From contig BPKG01000001.1 in NCBI GenBank assembly GCA_026005015.1, forward strand, positions 687,501 to 751,500: a stretch of 64,000 nt of DNA, written 5' to 3'. Of this stretch, positions 13,752 through 44,423 are shown in pieces. This stretch comes from Burkholderiales bacterium (GTDB lineage Bacteria; Pseudomonadota; Gammaproteobacteria; Burkholderiales; UBA6910). The notes below the pieces were generated by a model that saw nothing but the letters and a program-made list of their open reading frames with translations, did not search any database and had not been told where the DNA came from. Both the position numbers and the translations under genes were made by a program. Within the stretch, counting starts at the first letter, position 1. Each line of letters starts with the position of its first letter.

Positions 13752-14663
13752 CTATGCGAGCCGCTTGCGCTGCTCGTCCAGGCCGTCCCAGAAGGCCGCC
13801 ACCGCGTCCAGCATTTCGTTGCCGTAGCGGATGAAGGCGTCTTCGTCGAGAGGGTTCTGGAAGTAGTATTCCTCCAGCTCCTCCTGGGTGTGGCGCGCGT
13901 GCTGGGCTTCGAGCCGGCTGTGCCAGACGAAAAAGCCCAGGGGCAGGTCGGCGCCGTGGCGCTCGTTGTAGCGTTTCAAGCCCTCGATCAGCTCCTCCCA
14001 GAAGCCCGCCGACGCCCAGTTCTCCACCGCGTAGCTCGCCGCCTGGGAGACCGCGTAGTCCTCGCTCCCGTAGAGCCGGATGAGCTCGTCGCAGAAGAAG
14101 AGGGTGGAAGCGGTCCCGTGGCGGCGCTTGCCGATCTCGTCGAAGCGAAGCCCCAGCTTGCGGGCGATCTGGTAGAGCCATTCGAAGTGGCCCGCCTCGA
14201 AGCGGAAGGTACCGCCCTGGACGGTGCCCTCGGTGCCCACCTTGTCGGGATCGTAGTCCTGGATTTCCGCCGGCCGCCGGGCGCCGTGGGGGTTGAAGAT
14301 CACGCCGATCTCGTTGGCCAGGATCTCCTTGGAAGCCCGCATGCCCTCCAGGGTGTCGGCGTTGATCATCTTGTGGAGCTGGGCCACCAGGAACTGGTTG
14401 GAGAACACGGAGAACTGAACGACGAAGGCCCGGATCTGGGCCTCGTTCTGCTCCCCCCGCTTGAACCAGGCGGTATAGGCGTTGCGGGTGATGACCCGGT
14501 GGGTCAGCAGCTCCCGGTTGATCCGGTTCTGGAACCTCAGGAATTCCTTGCCTCGCTCGACGCTATAGCCGGGCCGCCCCGCCTGGATCGCCTGAAGGGA
14601 AGGCGCGGTGAGCCCCGCAAGTCCCCGGCGTGCGGCGTAATCCTGAAGTTCGCCCGCGAGCAC
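13752..14663 (-). CDS. Heme-oxygenase-like diiron (HDO) family enzyme
   Basis: All-helical protein of 303 residues that looks like an iron-containing HDO-fold enzyme, the group including UndA, CADD and SznF. Candidate metal ligands are E118, E156 with H159 (FEAGHFEWL), E214 (YAVENW) and H248, E252, H255 (HSRLEAQHARH). The spacings E-x2-H, then 55 residues to Glu, then 34 to His resemble the UndA metal site as I recall it. It has no signal peptide. The GTG at 14663 is preceded by GGGAGGA. A 9-bp inverted repeat lies about 20 nt upstream. It follows the tyrosine-degradation operon by 64 nt on the same strand. Substrate unknown; family call is moderately sure. Confidence 0.62.
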   Translation of the reverse strand: MLAGELQDYAARRGLAGLTAPSLQAIQAGRPGYSVERGKEFLRFQNRINRELLTHRVITRNAYTAWFKRGEQNEAQIRAFVVQFSVFSNQFLVAQLHKMINADTLEGMRASKEILANEIGVIFNPHGARRPAEIQDYDPDKVGTEGTVQGGTFRFEAGHFEWLYQIARKLGLRFDEIGKRRHGTASTLFFCDELIRLYGSEDYAVSQAASYAVENWASAGFWEELIEGLKRYNERHGADLPLGFFVWHSRLEAQHARHTQEELEEYYFQNPLDEDAFIRYGNEMLDAVAAFWDGLDEQRKRLA

Positions 14664-14682
14664 GGCGCTCCTCCCATTCTTT

Positions 14683-14709
14683 GGGTCAAATCCCCCAAGT
14701 ATTTGACCC
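14683..14709. promoter_or_regulatory. 9-bp perfect inverted repeat upstream of the HDO gene
   Basis: GGGTCAAAT (14683-14691) and ATTTGACCC (14701-14709) are perfect inverted copies with a 9-nt spacer, so the half-sites are 18 nt apart centre to centre, about two helical turns. The repeat sits between the maiA stop and the HDO gene start, just before its ribosome site. No T-run follows, so it is a more likely operator than terminator. No regulator gene is adjacent. Confidence 0.55.
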
Positions 14710-14727: not shown

Positions 14728-15417
14728 TTACCGCCCTCCTCTTTCCGGGGTGGGAGACTTCCCAGGCGAAGCGTCCGGCTGCCGCTCGGGGGCAGCCGCC
14801 TGGAACGCGGGAAGCGCCTCGCAACGCTCGGCGATGGCCCCTAGGGCGGGATACAGCGCGAGATCGCACCCGAAGCGCCGGGCGTTATAGAGCTGGGGCA
14901 CAAGGCAGGCGTCAGCCAGGGTCGGCCGATCCCCATGGCAGTAGGGCCCGGTGGCGGCGTCCTTCGAGAGCAGGGCCTCCAGGGCAGAGAGCCCTTCGGC
15001 GATCCAGTGGCAGACCCACCGGCGCCGGGCCTCTTCCCCCAGGCCCAGGGACGCCTCCAGGTACACCAGCACCCGCCGGTTGTTGAGCGGATGGATGTCG
15101 CAGGCGATGGTCTGGGCCAGGGACCGCACCCGGGCCCGCCCCCAGGGATCCGCCGGCAGCAGGGGCGGATGCGGGTGGCGCTCCTCCAGGTATTCCATGA
15201 TGGCCAGGGACTGGGTGAGCACCCGGTCCCCGTCCACCAGCACCGGCACGAACCCCTGGGGATTGAGGGCCCGGTGTTCCGGGCGGTGCTGCTCGCCGCG
15301 GACGAGATGGACGAACCGGGGCTGGTACTCGAGTCCCTTCAGGTGAAGCGCGATGCGCACCCGGTAAGCGGCGGAGCTGCGGTGGTAGGTGTAGAGCTGC
15401 AGCACAGGGTCCCCCAT
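14728..15417 (-). CDS. maiA: Maleylacetoacetate isomerase
   Basis: Zeta-class glutathione transferase that isomerises maleylacetoacetate to fumarylacetoacetate, using glutathione. The 229-residue protein begins with the thioredoxin-like GST domain carrying SSAAYRVRIAL, the zeta-class active-site loop, and continues with NPQGFVPVLVDGD and the helical domain with DIHPLNNRRVL and DACLVPQLYNARRF. It starts 3 nt after the fahA stop and closes the hpd-hmgA-fahA-maiA operon. The C-terminal tail rich in Pro and Gly is slightly long but unremarkable. Confidence 0.95.
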   Translation of the reverse strand: MGDPVLQLYTYHRSSAAYRVRIALHLKGLEYQPRFVHLVRGEQHRPEHRALNPQGFVPVLVDGDRVLTQSLAIMEYLEERHPHPPLLPADPWGRARVRSLAQTIACDIHPLNNRRVLVYLEASLGLGEEARRRWVCHWIAEGLSALEALLSKDAATGPYCHGDRPTLADACLVPQLYNARRFGCDLALYPALGAIAERCEALPAFQAAAPERQPDASPGKSPTPERGGR

Positions 15418-15420
15418 CTA

Positions 15421-16419
15421 TCAACTTCCCTGTCCCCGGCGATAAGGCTGTACTTCCTGGTCGATCGCCCCGAAGATGGACCGCCCTTCCGCGTCCAGCA
15501 TCTCGATGCGCACCCGGTCGCCGAACCGGAGATAAGGGGTCTGGGCCGCGCCGGTCTCGATCAGCTCCTGGGCCCGCTTCTCGGCGATGCAGCAGAAGCC
15601 GCGGGAAGGGTCGGCGTTGGACACCGTTCCCGAGCCGACGAGGGTGCCGGCGCCCAGGCGCCGGGTCCGGGCGGCATGGGCCACGAGGGCCGGAAAGTCG
15701 AATGTCATGTCCTCCCCCGCCTCGGGAGCGCCGAAGAGGGTCCCGTTGACCTGGACCCGCAAGGGCAGATGGACCCGGGCGCCGTCCCAAGCCGCACCCA
15801 GCTCGTCGGGGGTAGCCGCCACCGGGGAAAGGGCGCTCGCGGGCTTGCTGTGGAGAAAGCCGAACCCCTTGGCCAGCTCCGCGGGAATCAGGTGGCGCAG
15901 GGACACATCGTTCACCAGGACCAGCAGGACGATCTGCTCGCCCGCTTCGGCGGGGCCCGCCCCCATGGGCACGTCGTCTGTGATCACCGCCACCTCCGCC
16001 TCGAAGTCGATGCCCCAGTCCTCCGACTCGGCGAGAATGGGGTCGTGGGGGCCGAGGAAGCCGTCCGAGCCCCCTTGGTACATGAGGGGGTCCGTTTCCG
16101 AGTTGGGGGGCATCTCCGCGCCCCGCGCCCGCCGCACCCGCGCCACGTGGGGGAGGTAGGCGCTCCCGTCCAGCCACTGGTAAGCCCGGGGCAGGGGCGC
16201 CGCCAGGGCCTCCGGATCGAGCGGGAAAGCGCCGGGCATGCAGCCCTCGTTGAGCAGCCGGTAGACCGAACCGAGGGCCGGGCAGCAGGCCTCCCAGTCG
16301 TCCAGGGCCGCCTGGAGGGTCGGGGCGATTTCCGGCACCGGGACCGCCGTCGTTAGGTCGTGGGACACGACGACGAGCGTCCCGTCCCGCCCGCCGGACC
16401 TGAGGCTGCCGAGCTTCAC
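15421..16419 (-). CDS. fahA: Fumarylacetoacetase-family hydrolase
   Basis: Hydrolyses fumarylacetoacetate to fumarate and acetoacetate, the last step of tyrosine breakdown. The 332-residue protein has the FAH C-terminal domain with metal-binding carboxylates around DWGIDFEAEVAVI and VLVNDVSLR, and the conserved GSGTVSNADPSRGFCCIAEK near residue 270. GTG at 16419 was chosen: it overlaps the hmgA stop as GTGA and gives the usual start KLGSLRSGGRDG, whereas the longer frame runs into hmgA. It is the bacterial monofunctional FAH type, shorter than the animal enzyme. Confidence 0.94.
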   Translation of the reverse strand: MKLGSLRSGGRDGTLVVVSHDLTTAVPVPEIAPTLQAALDDWEACCPALGSVYRLLNEGCMPGAFPLDPEALAAPLPRAYQWLDGSAYLPHVARVRRARGAEMPPNSETDPLMYQGGSDGFLGPHDPILAESEDWGIDFEAEVAVITDDVPMGAGPAEAGEQIVLLVLVNDVSLRHLIPAELAKGFGFLHSKPASALSPVAATPDELGAAWDGARVHLPLRVQVNGTLFGAPEAGEDMTFDFPALVAHAARTRRLGAGTLVGSGTVSNADPSRGFCCIAEKRAQELIETGAAQTPYLRFGDRVRIEMLDAEGRSIFGAIDQEVQPYRRGQGS

Positions 16420-17543
16420 GGCTTGGCGAAATCCTTCCAGGAGTCCACGTACTCCCGCCACTCGATCATCTCCGCGGCGGGGGTCACGTCCAGGGCGTCC
16501 CGGCTATCCACCATCACCGCCACCTCGTTGGTCTCCCTGCGGGCCCCTGCGGCGGCGAAGGCCTTGGGATGGGGCCCGTGGGTGAAGCCCGAGGGGTGTA
16601 AGGTGATCATGCCGGGGCGGATATTGTCCCGGGAGAAGAACTCGCCCCGGTGGTAGAAGAGCACCTCGTCGTAGTCGTCGTTGTTGTGGAAAAAGGGCAC
16701 CTTGAGGGCCCCGGGGTCCGATTCCAGCGGGCGCGGGCAGAAGGTGCACACCACGAAGCGGGGCGCGACGAAGGTGGTGTGGGCCGAGGGGGGCAGGTGG
16801 GCCCGGTGACTCATCAACGGGCGCAGGTCCCGCCAGTTGATGCGCACCGGGGCCAGGGTGCCGTGCCAGCCCACTGCGTCCAGGGGGTTGAAGGGGAAGG
16901 TCTGGGTGGAGAGGGCTCCCCGCCGCTTGATGACCACGCGCCACTCGGTCTCCCCCTGCTGGGCGCGGAAGGCCTCGTCCATGGCCGGCACGTCGAGCGC
17001 CGCCGGGTCGAACACTGCGTGCTCGCCGGCGATGCCCTTTTCCGGCAGCCGGTAGCTCTCGTTGGTCGCTTCCAGGAGGAGCAGCACCACCGGGCCGCTC
17101 GCCTCGATGCGCCACAGGGTGCCTCGGGGAAGGAGGATGTAGTCCCCGTCCCGAAACGCCAGACGGCCGTAGTCGCAGAAGAGGTCCCCGGCGCCTTCAT
17201 GGACGAAGGCGAGCTCGTCCCCGTCGGCGTTGCGCACCAGGTGATCCATGACGCCTTCGGCCCGCCACAGCCGCAGTTGCAGATGGGGGTTCGCCAGCAG
17301 CAAGGTCGCGTCCCAGGGAGAGGCGCTCCCCCGTTCCAGCCGGTTGGTGTCGAAAGCCCGCGGCCGCAGGGGCCCCTCGAACCGGCTCCAGGCGGTGGGT
17401 GGATGGCGATGGTACATTTGGGTGGAAGGCCCGTAGAACCCCTCCCGGCCCAGCTCCCGCTCGTAGGTGCCCGGCGGCAGATCAGCGTGGGCCTGGCGGG
17501 AAGCGACGCCCTCGACTCGAGGAAAGGTGATCCACTTGGCCAT
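16416..17543 (-). CDS. hmgA: Homogentisate 1,2-dioxygenase
   Basis: Non-heme iron ring-opening dioxygenase that turns homogentisate into maleylacetoacetate. The 375-residue protein is a cupin with the family blocks GEFFSRDNIRPGMITLHPSG and FTHGPHPKAF, which supply iron ligands, and NPLDAVGWHGTLAP earlier. It lies 12 nt downstream of hpd and its stop overlaps fahA, so the pathway order is kept in the operon. Slightly shorter than the human enzyme, as usual for this bacterial group. Confidence 0.95.
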   Translation of the reverse strand: MAKWITFPRVEGVASRQAHADLPPGTYERELGREGFYGPSTQMYHRHPPTAWSRFEGPLRPRAFDTNRLERGSASPWDATLLLANPHLQLRLWRAEGVMDHLVRNADGDELAFVHEGAGDLFCDYGRLAFRDGDYILLPRGTLWRIEASGPVVLLLLEATNESYRLPEKGIAGEHAVFDPAALDVPAMDEAFRAQQGETEWRVVIKRRGALSTQTFPFNPLDAVGWHGTLAPVRINWRDLRPLMSHRAHLPPSAHTTFVAPRFVVCTFCPRPLESDPGALKVPFFHNNDDYDEVLFYHRGEFFSRDNIRPGMITLHPSGFTHGPHPKAFAAAGARRETNEVAVMVDSRDALDVTPAAEMIEWREYVDSWKDFAKP

Positions 17544-17555
17544 AGGAAGGACTCC

Positions 17556-18599
17556 CTAGAGCGCTCCCCGCGCGATCTGCTCCCGCTCCATCGCCTCGAA
17601 CAGGGCGCGGAAATTGCCTTCGCCGAAGCCCTCGTTGCCCTTGCGCTGGATCAGCTCGAAGAAGATGGGTCCGATCACGGTTTCGGTGAAGATCTGCAGC
17701 AGCCATCCTTCCTGGGGGGAGCCGTCGATCAGGATGCCGTCGCGCCGCAACCGCTCCAGGTCCTCCCCGTGGCCGGGAAGCCGCTCGTCCAGCGCGTCGT
17801 AGTAGGCCCCCGGCACTTCCAGGAAGCGAATGCCCCGCGCCCGCAGCCGCCCCACGCTGGCGCAGATGTCGCCGGTGGCCAGGGCGATGTGCTGGATCCC
17901 CTCTCCCCGATAGGCGGCAAGATACTCCTCCACCTGGGACCTGTCATCGGCGGACTCGTTGATGGGGATGCGGATCTTGCCGCAGGGGCTCGCCATGGCC
18001 CGGGACTTGAGCCCCGTCGCGATCCCGTGGATGTCGAAGTAGCGGATCTCGCGGAAACCGAACAGCCGCTCGTAGAACCGGGCCCACTGGTCCATGCGGC
18101 CCCGGTGCACGTTGTGGGTCAGATGGTCGACGGCAGTGAGCCCCGCGGAAGGCGCTGGGGGCGCGTCCACCGGGACGAAGTCCACGTCGTAGATGGTGGT
18201 GTCGCCGTAGCGGTCCACCAGGTAGATGAGGCTGCCGCCGATGCCCCGGATCGCCGGGATGGTGAGCTCCCCCGGTCCCACCGGACCGTAATAGGGCTTC
18301 GCGCCCAGCGCCAGCGCCCGCTGGAAGGCGGCCTGAGCATCCCGCACGCGGATGCCGAAGGCGCACACGGACGGTCCGTGGACCCGGGCGAAGGCCTGGG
18401 CGAAGCTGTGGGGCTCGTGATTGAGGATGAAATTGATGTCGCCCTGGCGGTACAGCACCACGTCCTTGGAGCGGTGGCGGGCGACGGGGGAGAATCCCAT
18501 GCGCTCGAACAGCTCGGCGAGGCTGCGGGTATCGGGGGCGGTGTACTCGACGAACTCGAAACCGTCGGTACCCACGGGATTGGGCTGTTCCCCGGTCAT
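17556..18599 (-). CDS. hpd: 4-hydroxyphenylpyruvate dioxygenase
   Basis: Iron enzyme converting 4-hydroxyphenylpyruvate to homogentisate. The 347 residues form two vicinal-oxygen-chelate domains; the second carries the iron ligands at VDHLTHNV, GIQHIALAT and the Glu of FFELIQRKGNEGFGEGNF. The family C-terminus is complete. The ATG at 18599 (MTGEQPNPVG) was chosen; the open frame extends much further upstream but only through the antisense of the E1 alpha gene. It is the first gene of the homogentisate operon and diverges from the 2-oxoacid dehydrogenase genes across about 220 nt. Confidence 0.96.
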   Translation of the reverse strand: MTGEQPNPVGTDGFEFVEYTAPDTRSLAELFERMGFSPVARHRSKDVVLYRQGDINFILNHEPHSFAQAFARVHGPSVCAFGIRVRDAQAAFQRALALGAKPYYGPVGPGELTIPAIRGIGGSLIYLVDRYGDTTIYDVDFVPVDAPPAPSAGLTAVDHLTHNVHRGRMDQWARFYERLFGFREIRYFDIHGIATGLKSRAMASPCGKIRIPINESADDRSQVEEYLAAYRGEGIQHIALATGDICASVGRLRARGIRFLEVPGAYYDALDERLPGHGEDLERLRRDGILIDGSPQEGWLLQIFTETVIGPIFFELIQRKGNEGFGEGNFRALFEAMEREQIARGAL

Positions 18600-18818: not shown

Positions 18819-19919
18819 TTGAGCGTCGTCGCCACGTTCCAAGTCCAATTCCGGCGCTTTCTGGACCCTGCGGGCCGCGTGGTGCAGCCCCTTCCCCCCT
18901 TCGCCGCCGATCCCCGGAACCTGATCCCCCTGTACCGGACGATGGCCCTCACCCGCGCCTTCGACGCCAAGGCCATCGCCCTGCAGCGCACCGGGCGCCT
19001 GGGCACCTTCGCCTCTTCTCTGGGACAGGAGGCGGTAAGCGTGGGCGTGGGCAGCGCCATGCGCCCCGAGGACGCGCTGCTCCCCGCGTACCGGGAATAC
19101 GGCGCCCAGTTTCTCCGCGGCGTCACCATGACCGAAATCCTCCTCTACTGGAGCGGGGACGAGCGCGGGATGGACTTCTCCGGCCCGCCCCACGACTTTC
19201 CCATCTGCGTCCCCATCGCCAGCCAGGTGTGCCACGCTGCGGGGGTGGCCTACGCCTTCCAGTACCGGCGCGAGCCCCGGGTGGCGGTGGCCGTGTTCGG
19301 CGACGGCGCCACCTCCAAGGGCGATTTCTACGAGGCCCTCAACATCGCCGGCGTGTGGCGGCTGCCCGCGGTGTTCGTGATCAACAACAACCAGTGGGCC
19401 ATCTCGGTGCCCCGCGCCCGCCAGACCGCCGCCGAAACCCTGGCCCAGAAGGCCGTCGCCGCCGGCATCCCGGGCGAGCAGGTGGACGGCAACGACGTGA
19501 TCGCGGTGCGCCACGCCGTGGGTGAGGCCCTGGCCAAGGCCCGCGCCGGCGGCGGCCCCACCCTGATCGAGGCCCTCACCTACCGGCTCGGGGATCACAC
19601 CACCGCCGACGACGCCAGCCGCTACCGGGACGCGGAAACGGTGAAGGCCCGCTGGGCGGAGGAGCCCCTGTCCCGGCTGCGGGCTTATCTCGCCCGCTGC
19701 GGCGCCTGGGACCGGGAGAAGGAAGAGGCGCTGGAAAAGGAATGCGCCCGTCGAGTGCAGGCGGCGGTGGACGAGTTCCTGGCGATCCGGCCGCCGGGGC
19801 CGGAACAGATGTTCGACTGCCTCTACGCGGCGCTGCCCGCCGCGCTGGAAGAGCAGCGCGCCATCGCCCTCGCCTTCGCGCCGCGGACCGCCCCTTCCGA
19901 GGAGGGCAGGGATGGCTGA
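18819..19919 (+). CDS. pdhA: 2-oxoacid (pyruvate-type) dehydrogenase E1 alpha subunit
   Basis: Thiamine-diphosphate-binding half of an alpha2beta2 E1 that decarboxylates a 2-oxoacid and acylates the E2 lipoyl group. The 366-residue protein contains the ThDP motif GDGATSKGDFYEALN ending in NNN (residues about 165-195) and SLGQEAVSVGVGSAM near residue 70. The resemblance is to pyruvate-type E1 alpha, but a branched-chain substrate cannot be excluded. The start is TTG at 18819, supported by GAGGAGG a few bases upstream. It overlaps E1 beta by 8 nt. Confidence 0.88.
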   Translation: MSVVATFQVQFRRFLDPAGRVVQPLPPFAADPRNLIPLYRTMALTRAFDAKAIALQRTGRLGTFASSLGQEAVSVGVGSAMRPEDALLPAYREYGAQFLRGVTMTEILLYWSGDERGMDFSGPPHDFPICVPIASQVCHAAGVAYAFQYRREPRVAVAVFGDGATSKGDFYEALNIAGVWRLPAVFVINNNQWAISVPRARQTAAETLAQKAVAAGIPGEQVDGNDVIAVRHAVGEALAKARAGGGPTLIEALTYRLGDHTTADDASRYRDAETVKARWAEEPLSRLRAYLARCGAWDREKEEALEKECARRVQAAVDEFLAIRPPGPEQMFDCLYAALPAALEEQRAIALAFAPRTAPSEEGRDG

Positions 19920-20892
19920 AGTCACCATGGTGGAAGCCATCAACATGGCCCTCGCCTGGGAGATGGCCCGGGACCCCGCGGTCATCGTGCTGGGGGAGGA
20001 CGTGGGGGTGAACGGCGGCGTGTTCCGCGCCACCGTGGGGCTGCTCGCGCGCTTCGGCGCCGAGCGGGTGCTGGACACGCCCTTGGCGGAAACCGCCATC
20101 GCCGGGATCTCGGTGGGCATGGCGGCCCAGGGCCTCAAGCCTGTGGCAGAGATCCAGTTCACCGGCTTCATCTACCCGGCCCTGGACCACATCGTCAACC
20201 ATGCCAGCCGCATGCGCCATCGCACCCGGGGACGCCTCTCCTGCCCCATGGTGCTGCGCTCCCCGTGCGGCGCCGGCATCCATGCGCCGGAGCACCACTC
20301 GGAGAGCGTGGAGGCGTTCTTCGTCCACGTGCCCGGGCTGCGGGTGGTCATTCCTTCGTCTCCCCAGCGGGCCTACGGGCTGCTCCTCGCCGCGATCCGC
20401 GACCCCGATCCGGTCATCTTCCTCGAGCCCACCCGCCTCTACCGCCTGTTCCGCCAGGAGGTGGCGGACAACGGGGAGGCTCTCCCCCTGGACGTGTGCT
20501 TCACCCTGAGGGAAGGCAGCGACGTGACCCTGGTCTCCTGGGGCGCTACGGTGCACGAGACCCTGGCGGCCGCCGACACCCTGGCGGCGGAAGGGATCTC
20601 CTGCGAGGTGATCGATGTGGCCACCCTCAAGCCCTTGGACATGGGCAGCATCCTGGCGTCGGTCGCCCGCACCGGCCGCTGCGTCATCGTCCACGAGGCG
20701 GCGCGCACCGGAGGTTTCGGCGCCGAGATCGTGGCGGGCCTCGCCGAGCGTGGCCTTCTCAGCCTCCTCGCCCCGGTGGAGCGGGTCACGGGCTACGACG
20801 TGGTGGTACCCCTCGCCCGGCTCGAGTACCAGTACATGCCCAACGTGGAGCGCATCGTCGCCGCCGTGCGCAAGACGCTCAAATTCGCGTAA
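19912..20892 (+). CDS. pdhB: 2-oxoacid (pyruvate-type) dehydrogenase E1 beta subunit
   Basis: Beta subunit completing the E1 active site. The 326-residue protein has the transketolase-type pyrimidine-binding domain (VIVLGEDVGVNGGVFRAT, ETAIAGISVGMAAQGLKPV) and a C-terminal transketolase domain (LVSWGATVHETL, VIVHEAARTGGFGAEI). It overlaps E1 alpha and is followed by E2 after 35 nt that include a fragment of the window's GAGGCACAGAG repeat. Substrate uncertainty is the same as for the alpha subunit. Confidence 0.9.
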   Translation: MAEVTMVEAINMALAWEMARDPAVIVLGEDVGVNGGVFRATVGLLARFGAERVLDTPLAETAIAGISVGMAAQGLKPVAEIQFTGFIYPALDHIVNHASRMRHRTRGRLSCPMVLRSPCGAGIHAPEHHSESVEAFFVHVPGLRVVIPSSPQRAYGLLLAAIRDPDPVIFLEPTRLYRLFRQEVADNGEALPLDVCFTLREGSDVTLVSWGATVHETLAAADTLAAEGISCEVIDVATLKPLDMGSILASVARTGRCVIVHEAARTGGFGAEIVAGLAERGLLSLLAPVERVTGYDVVVPLARLEYQYMPNVERIVAAVRKTLKFA

Positions 20893-44347: not shown

Positions 44348-44423
44348 GCCCCGGTAGCTCAGTGGATAGAGCAGCCCCCTCCTAAGGGGCAGGTCGCACG
44401 TTCGATTCGTGTTCGGGGCGCCA
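44348..44423 (+). tRNA. tRNA-Arg (anticodon CCT)
   Basis: The 76-nt sequence folds as a cloverleaf: 7-bp acceptor stem GCCCCGG/TCGGGGC (with one G-T pair), D-arm AGCTC...GAGC, anticodon arm CCCC-CTCCTAA-GGGG with anticodon CCT, and T-arm with loop TTCGATT. The CCA end is encoded at 44421-44423. It reads AGG codons. No integrase or truncated copy is next to it, so it is not an obvious attachment site. Confidence 0.96.

What the first reader, a model, noticed from the sequence alone, without database searches (positions are those of the whole stretch)
13752..14709. HDO-fold enzyme with UndA-like metal spacing and its own operator, beside tyrosine catabolism
The residues E118, E156/H159, E214 and H248/E252/H255 keep spacings like the UndA diiron site. 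A perfect 9-bp inverted repeat lies just upstream. The gene follows hpd-hmgA-fahA-maiA. HDO enzymes do unusual chemistry, and the CADD branch uses a tyrosine to make p-aminobenzoate, so a new product here is possible.
Basis: partly seen in the sequence, partly recalled or inferred. Interest (0 to 1): 0.6.

Follow-up and report, generated by a model that had tools for sequence, protein, structure and literature searches.

The report
Candidate non-pterin phenylalanine hydroxylase beside homogentisate genes
This gene encodes a two-metal, oxygen-using enzyme that travels with the tyrosine-breakdown genes in many bacteria and occurs almost only where the usual phenylalanine hydroxylase is missing, so it is probably a new, unrelated enzyme that turns phenylalanine into tyrosine.

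Summary
The 303-aa protein (13752-14663, minus strand) is predicted to have the heme-oxygenase-like dimetal oxidase (HDO) fold: pLDDT 90, best PDB matches CADD, BesC and UndA. Its ligand set E118-H159-E214-H248-E252-H255 is invariant in 83 relatives. E156 is not conserved, so the 'UndA-like' E156/H159 pair is wrong. An insertion separates E118 and H159. The 9-bp inverted repeat is real, but it is not conserved, and nothing shows it to be an operator.

The main new result is context. About 46 of 80 relatives, from Proteobacteria to Bdellovibrionota, Neomarinimicrobiota and Cyanobacteria, lie beside hpd/hmgA/fahA/maiA. The pterin-dependent phenylalanine hydroxylase PhhA is found in 1 of 57 genomes carrying this HDO, against 29 of 54 HmgA-bearing genomes without it. 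In four HDO-less genomes PhhA sits inside the otherwise syntenic operon. A flavin reductase joins the cluster in four loci.

Best explanation (about 0.5): a pterin-independent, dimetal phenylalanine 4-hydroxylase that replaces PhhA as the entry step to the homogentisate pathway. No assay was possible, and the exclusion rests on few independent switches. No curated family covers the protein, and no paper found describes it.

The parts
13752..14663 (-). HDO-fold enzyme (303 aa), proposed dimetal phenylalanine 4-hydroxylase
   Evidence: ORF; fold; sub-threshold PF14518; 115 relatives found in GTDB genomes
14310..14312 (-). Codon of E118, proposed alpha1 carboxylate ligand, end of helix 105-118
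   Evidence: invariant in 83/83
14190..14309 (-). Residues 119-158: insertion with two predicted beta strands that splits core helix alpha1 between ligands E118 and H159
   Evidence: predicted secondary structure; CADD-family profile matches begin right at H159
14187..14189 (-). Codon of H159, proposed alpha1 His ligand (CADD-family profile position about 81)
   Evidence: invariant 83/83
14022..14024 (-). Codon of E214, proposed alpha2 carboxylate ligand
   Evidence: invariant 83/83
13899..13922 (-). H248-x3-E252-x2-H255, core helix alpha3 HX3EX2H ligand motif
   Evidence: invariant in every relative that covers it; same motif form as AetD in PMC11611611
14683..14709 (.). Perfect 9-bp inverted repeat, 9-nt spacer, in the maiA-HDO gap; possible operator, not shown
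14728..15417 (-). maiA, maleylacetoacetate isomerase (GST fold)
   Evidence: conserved neighbour in 24 loci
15421..16461 (-). fahA, fumarylacetoacetase
   Evidence: conserved neighbour in 32 loci
16416..17543 (-). hmgA, short-type homogentisate 1,2-dioxygenase (375 aa)
   Evidence: conserved neighbour in 42 loci
17556..18599 (-). hpd, 4-hydroxyphenylpyruvate dioxygenase (start placed at the ATG of MTGEQPNPVGTDGFEF)
   Evidence: conserved neighbour in 39 loci

Best explanation
The gene encodes a member of an undescribed subfamily of heme-oxygenase-like dimetal oxygenases that acts in catabolism of aromatic amino acids through homogentisate. Most likely it is a pterin-independent phenylalanine 4-hydroxylase. 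A dimetal centre (Fe/Fe, or possibly Mn/Fe) held by E118, H159, E214, H248, E252 and H255 would be reduced by an outside donor (a flavin reductase in some relatives), bind O2 to form a peroxo intermediate, and hydroxylate L-Phe to L-Tyr. Tyr then enters transamination, Hpd, HmgA, MaiA and FahA. It would thus replace the unrelated pterin enzyme PhhA. Supported by computation: fold, invariant 3-His/3-carboxylate set, conserved operon membership, near-absence of PhhA. Inferred: metal identity, substrate, product and electron donor.
For: Fold and ligand set. Linkage: about 46 of 80 relatives lie within 8 kb of hpd, hmgA, fahA or maiA, usually hpd-hmgA-fahA-maiA-HDO; linked members occur in both main clades of the tree; in the cyanobacterium Kovacikia the order is hpd-hmgA-HDO-acyl/acetoacetyl-CoA synthetase-aminotransferase. 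Co-occurrence: HmgA in 50 of 57 HDO genomes against 39 of 274 class genomes. Exclusion: PhhA (PF00351) in 1 of 57 HDO genomes; class and order controls: 0 of 6 HmgA+ HDO+ against 29 of 54 HmgA+ HDO- (Fisher p 0.024; class alone 0 of 6 against 20 of 33, p 0.008); all HDO+ HmgA+ genomes 1 of 50 against 29 of 54, p 8e-10, not corrected for relatedness. Replacement in place: in four HDO-less genomes PhhA lies inside the syntenic operon (PhhA-hpd-hmgA in L089 and L106; hpd-PhhA-hmgA in L107 and L108). Amino-acid and electron-supply context: flavin reductase in the cluster of L045, L047, L048 and L080; an aminotransferase of one cluster in L022, L047 and L048; AsnC/Lrp regulator beside HDO in L081, L085 and L087.
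Against: No HDO known in the 2026 review hydroxylates an aromatic ring (PMC13108848). Moritella sp. PE36 has both HDO and PhhA. 25 of 54 HmgA+ HDO- genomes lack PhhA too, so the pathway can exist without either. On an HmgA tree the trait switches only about four times, too few for a significant phylogenetic test. About 34 of 80 relatives show no pathway gene within the fetched DNA, some because the contig ends. The Gloeothece homologue sits with a 2-oxoglutarate dioxygenase and a PLP enzyme instead. Pterin-4a-carbinolamine dehydratase is kept in most genomes whatever they carry, so it does not discriminate.
Confidence: 0.5

Rival explanations
1. An HDO of the homogentisate pathway that acts on another aromatic entry compound (phenylpyruvate, a hydroxyphenylacetate or another precursor of homogentisate) rather than on phenylalanine.
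For: Conserved operon membership and an oxygenase fold fit any feeder step. Other peripheral hydroxylases feed homogentisate, for example 2-hydroxyphenylacetate hydroxylation (PMC8449657, listed).
Against: Hpd is present in most linked loci, pointing to the Phe/Tyr route. Only a Phe-hydroxylase role predicts the near-absence of PhhA. AsnC/Lrp regulators and aminotransferases nearby point to an amino acid.
Confidence: 0.2
2. A side-branch enzyme that diverts tyrosine, 4-hydroxyphenylpyruvate or homogentisate into a new small molecule, by oxidative decarboxylation, nitrile formation or rearrangement as in UndA, AetD or BesC.
For: Known HDOs mostly do unusual amino-acid or fatty-acid chemistry (PMC13108848). 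The Gloeothece homologue sits with a 2-oxoglutarate dioxygenase and a PLP enzyme.
Against: The linked loci look purely catabolic: acetoacetyl-CoA synthetase, branched-chain and leucine breakdown genes, no export or tailoring genes seen. A side branch does not explain the near-absence of PhhA.
Confidence: 0.15
3. A CADD/PabS-like p-aminobenzoate synthase that consumes its own tyrosine.
For: CtCADD is the closest solved structure, and 35 of 66 members show a weak hit to the CADD model.
Against: At most 31 bits against a cut-off of 200. The position roughly equivalent to Tyr27 is Y in 62 and F in 21; the one equivalent to the catalytic Lys is E or Q. Linkage is to homogentisate catabolism, not folate.
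Confidence: 0.04
4. A non-enzymatic or accessory protein of the pathway (regulator, metal chaperone, protection against homogentisate-derived quinones) with a vestigial HDO fold.
For: HDO-fold proteins without metal exist (PqqC, TenA).
Against: All six ligand positions are invariant across 83 proteins from many phyla, and the family accompanies both short- and long-type HmgA.
Confidence: 0.08

Closest known systems
CtCADD / NePabS (self-sacrificing p-aminobenzoate synthase, HDO superfamily)
   Same: Closest solved fold (E 1.3e-5); same 3-His/3-carboxylate arrangement; alpha1 interrupted by a loop
   Different: About 16% identity; far below the CADD model cut-off; larger insertion in alpha1; Tyr and Lys of the self-sacrifice reaction not kept; different gene context
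UndA (fatty-acid decarboxylase)
   Same: HDO fold (TM by target 0.67) and the same kinds of ligand
   Different: No detectable sequence similarity; alpha1 ligands 41 residues apart instead of a few; context of amino-acid breakdown
AetD and BesC (amino-acid-acting HDOs)
   Same: HX3(D/E)X2H on alpha3; proposed amino-acid substrate
   Different: They rearrange or fragment amino acids in natural-product pathways; this family sits in primary catabolism
PhhA, pterin-dependent phenylalanine 4-hydroxylase (PF00351)
   Same: Proposed same reaction and same pathway slot; PhhA lies inside the same operon in HDO-less genomes (L089, L106-L108)
   Different: Unrelated fold and cofactor: mononuclear iron plus tetrahydropterin, against a dimetal centre without evident pterin

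Membership tests
[quoted passage not shown]
   pLDDT 90 model; 13 PDB matches at E <= 0.001, all of this fold class
[quoted passage not shown]
   E118, H159, E214, H248, E252, H255 invariant; register agrees with the CADD profile for the last five. Side-chain geometry could not be measured.
[quoted passage not shown]
   needs purified protein
Pfam PF14518 Haem_oxygenas_2 | Score over the gathering cut-off (28.9 bits) | tested here: not met
   15.8 bits for the window protein; best E among 66 members 8e-5
CADD/PabS p-aminobenzoate synthase (TIGR04305) | Score over the curated cut-off (200 bits) | tested here: not met
   best 31.3 bits
CADD/PabS p-aminobenzoate synthase (TIGR04305) | Conserved sacrificial tyrosine (Tyr27) and active-site lysine | tested here: not met
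   Y/F (62/21) and E/Q at the roughly equivalent positions; the Lys is from general knowledge, and equivalence is by profile offset
UndA | UndA-like ligand spacing, with an ExxH pair on alpha1 | tested here: not met
   E156 is not conserved (6 of 83); E118 and H159 are 41 residues apart
Phenylalanine 4-hydroxylase (function) | Belongs to the Pfam biopterin-dependent hydroxylases | tested here: not met
   only PF14518, sub-threshold, is found; a functional analogue is proposed, not a family member
Phenylalanine 4-hydroxylase (function) | Forms tyrosine from phenylalanine | not testable with these tools
   only co-occurrence and operon context could be tested

The most novel reading that the evidence does not exclude
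A second, unrelated phenylalanine hydroxylase exists in bacteria: a pterin-free dimetal enzyme with the HDO fold, spread over more than ten phyla, which replaces PhhA inside the homogentisate operon. It would be the first HDO to hydroxylate an aromatic ring and the first HDO tied to primary catabolism.
Probability: 0.48. Interest if true: 0.85.

Novelty: new variant of a known kind. Interest (0 to 1): 0.66.

Why it matters
If true, it fills a gap in phenylalanine breakdown for many bacteria that have the homogentisate pathway but no PhhA. It would add aromatic-ring hydroxylation to the chemistry of the HDO superfamily, and it would give a pterin-independent phenylalanine-to-tyrosine enzyme of practical interest. 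It turns an unannotated family (no Pfam or NCBIfam model over cut-off) into a directly testable one with a simple growth assay.

Tried and rejected
- E156 as ligand: rejected, not conserved.
- The inverted repeat as RNA hairpin or terminator: no T run, RNA z-score -0.14, hairpin not in the minimum-energy fold. As a conserved operator: no match in any other fetched locus and no clear half-site enrichment upstream of relatives (12 seen, 5.2 expected, AT-rich genomes included).
- Pterin-4a-carbinolamine dehydratase as a marker of a pterin-using HDO: present almost everywhere. Extra weak copies in HDO genomes may be RuBisCO-associated relatives (my knowledge), so not used.
- Viral relatives: none. 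Plasmids: only two cyanobacterial records.
- Phylogenetically controlled exclusion test on an HmgA tree: only 2-4 independent pairs, no power.
- Sampling the order of G028: it held only two genomes.
- Literature for a pterin-free or HDO phenylalanine hydroxylase, or an HDO tied to homogentisate: none found in the open-access library.
- Relatives' gene calls in GC-rich loci contain antisense ORFs (cluster c7, for example), so linkage was recounted with tblastn.

Full report
What was checked. The ORF at 13752-14663 (minus strand, GTG start, 303 aa) is real and is the last gene of a same-strand series hpd-hmgA-fahA-maiA-HDO. Pfam confirms the four upstream genes: HPPD N-terminal domain, HgmA_N, FAA_hydrolase, and GST domains for MaiA. 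The protein itself passes no Pfam or NCBIfam cut-off; the only Pfam hint is PF14518 'Iron-containing redox enzyme' at 15.8 bits against 28.9.

Fold. AlphaFold2 with 66 relatives gave pLDDT 90.1 and pTM 0.86. Foldseek's best PDB matches are CtCADD (E 1.3e-5, TM by target 0.78-0.83), PqqC, apo BesC, CADD-like proteins, UndA (0.67) and later HrmI, FlcD and PolF.

Metal site. In 83 proteins (the window, 80 GTDB relatives, 2 cyanobacterial plasmids) E118, H159, E161, E214, H248, E252 and H255 are invariant where covered. This matches the E-H-E-H-(D/E)-H motif of HDOs (PMC11363339) and the HX3EX2H form of AetD (PMC11611611). Weak matches to the NCBIfam CADD profile begin at profile position about 80, one residue before the H159 equivalent. 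They place E214 at about 136 and H248/E252/H255 at about 170/174/177, which agrees with CADD numbering after a constant offset and small gaps (CADD residue numbers from my knowledge). E118 therefore lies before, and H159 after, a 40-residue insertion with two predicted strands. Interruption of alpha1 by a loop is also reported for CADD and SznF (PMC11611611).

Inverted repeat. GGGTCAAAT-N9-ATTTGACCC at 14683-14709 is exact and unique in the window. The window holds 19 perfect repeats of 9 bp or more with short loops, against about 9.5 in Markov sequences, so one such repeat is not remarkable in itself. It is not found in any other fetched locus, half-sites are not clearly conserved upstream of relatives, and RNA folding gives no signal. 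It may be an operator; nothing shows it.

Distribution. The family is patchy: 8 hits in 274 class genomes, of which one (G007, 23% identity) is a distant relative and one (G196) a truncated copy; and only the window's own genome among 100 of its order. The same-genus genome G694 lacks both HDO and HmgA. Across GTDB, 115 relatives were found and 80 fetched. Their record titles span Gamma- and Betaproteobacteria, 'Deltaproteobacteria', Bdellovibrionota, Nitrospira, Neomarinimicrobiota, Krumholzibacteria, Acidobacteria, Gemmatimonas, Melainabacteria and others; some are MAGs whose labels may be wrong. Two cyanobacterial plasmids carry it too.

Gene context. By tblastn, HmgA lies within the fetched flanks of 42 of 80 relatives, Hpd 39, FahA 32, MaiA 24, and any of them 47, one of these only by a weak FahA match. 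The usual order is that of the window. Other arrangements keep the link: HDO convergent to the operon in Moritella; HDO divergent from hpd-hmgA-fahA-flavin reductase in 'Deltaproteobacteria'; HDO-hpd-hmgA-fahA-flavin reductase in Neomarinimicrobiota; hmgA-HDO in Bdellovibrionales; HDO-hpd in Sericytochromatia. In Kovacikia the order is hpd-hmgA-HDO-acyl/acetoacetyl-CoA synthetase-aminotransferase. On the HDO tree linked members occur in both main clades, with 12 changes of the label against 26.9 in shuffles. AsnC/Lrp regulators sit beside HDO in three loci, and an aminotransferase beside it in another.

The PhhA test. The linked pathway starts from phenylalanine or tyrosine, and the one oxygenase of that route not in the window's operon is phenylalanine hydroxylase. 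PhhA (PF00351) is present in 1 of 57 HDO genomes, Moritella sp. PE36 only, while HmgA is present in 50 of 57. In the class control 39 of 274 genomes have HmgA. Of these, the 6 with HDO have no PhhA, and 20 of the 33 without HDO have it (p 0.008). In the order control 9 of 21 HmgA+ HDO- genomes have PhhA. Pooled: 0 of 6 against 29 of 54 (p 0.024), or 1 of 50 against 29 of 54 with all HDO genomes (p 8e-10, not corrected for relatedness). In four HDO-less genomes with the same short-type HmgA, PhhA lies inside the operon: PhhA-hpd-hmgA-...-fahA-maiA in L089 (G025) and L106 (G672), hpd-PhhA-hmgA-fahA-maiA in L107 (G680) and L108 (G720). This is the pattern expected of non-orthologous replacement. 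The caveat is real: on an HmgA tree only about four independent switches exist, which cannot reach significance, and many HmgA+ genomes have neither gene.

Mechanism. Inference: reduced dimetal centre plus O2 gives a peroxo intermediate, as in UndA and SznF (PMC13108848), which hydroxylates the phenylalanine ring at C4. Multiple-turnover HDOs other than FlcD need outside reductant (PMC11363339). A flavin reductase in four clusters of two lineages is a plausible donor, since Hpd, HmgA and FahA are not known to need one. No HDO in the 2026 review hydroxylates an aromatic ring, so this would be new chemistry for the fold.

Membership. It is an HDO by fold and ligand motif. It is not CADD/PabS (31 bits against 200; Tyr and Lys positions not kept), not UndA by ligand spacing, and not a PhhA homologue. 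The open-access library holds no paper found to describe an HDO tied to homogentisate or a pterin-free phenylalanine hydroxylase of this kind; subscription papers and preprints were not searchable.

Verdict.

Noticed in passing
L007 1501-1812 (G196:C192:5339-5650): A truncated HDO relative: residues 1-109 are followed directly by the C-terminal 'EMLDAVA' part, as if about 170 residues were deleted. This genome lacks HmgA, so the gene may be decaying with the pathway.
   Followed up: partly
L045, L047, L048, L080 (cluster c26; for example L047:3826-4677 -): A flavin reductase (PF01613) joins the hpd/hmgA/fahA/HDO cluster in four loci of two lineages; possible electron donor.
   Followed up: partly
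window 16416-17543 and relatives: HmgA comes in a short type (about 375 aa, HgmA_N matches only from position about 120) and a long type (about 440 aa). HDO accompanies both.
   Followed up: partly
L112 8923-11818 (Gloeothece verrucosa PCC 7822 plasmid): The HDO homologue is followed by a 2OG-Fe dioxygenase (PF10014) and a PLP class-V enzyme rather than homogentisate genes; possible amino-acid-modifying cluster.
   Followed up: no
window 18819-20892: Divergent 2-oxo-acid dehydrogenase E1 alpha and beta genes beside the hpd operon. The same neighbours, plus an amino-acid dehydrogenase, recur beside the operon in several relatives (L015, L017, L019, L020, L041).
   Followed up: partly
G000:C4 and C5: The genome has three pterin-4a-carbinolamine dehydratase matches but no PhhA.
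   Followed up: no
window 44348-44423: The only structured RNA found in the window: tRNA-Arg (cct).
   Followed up: no
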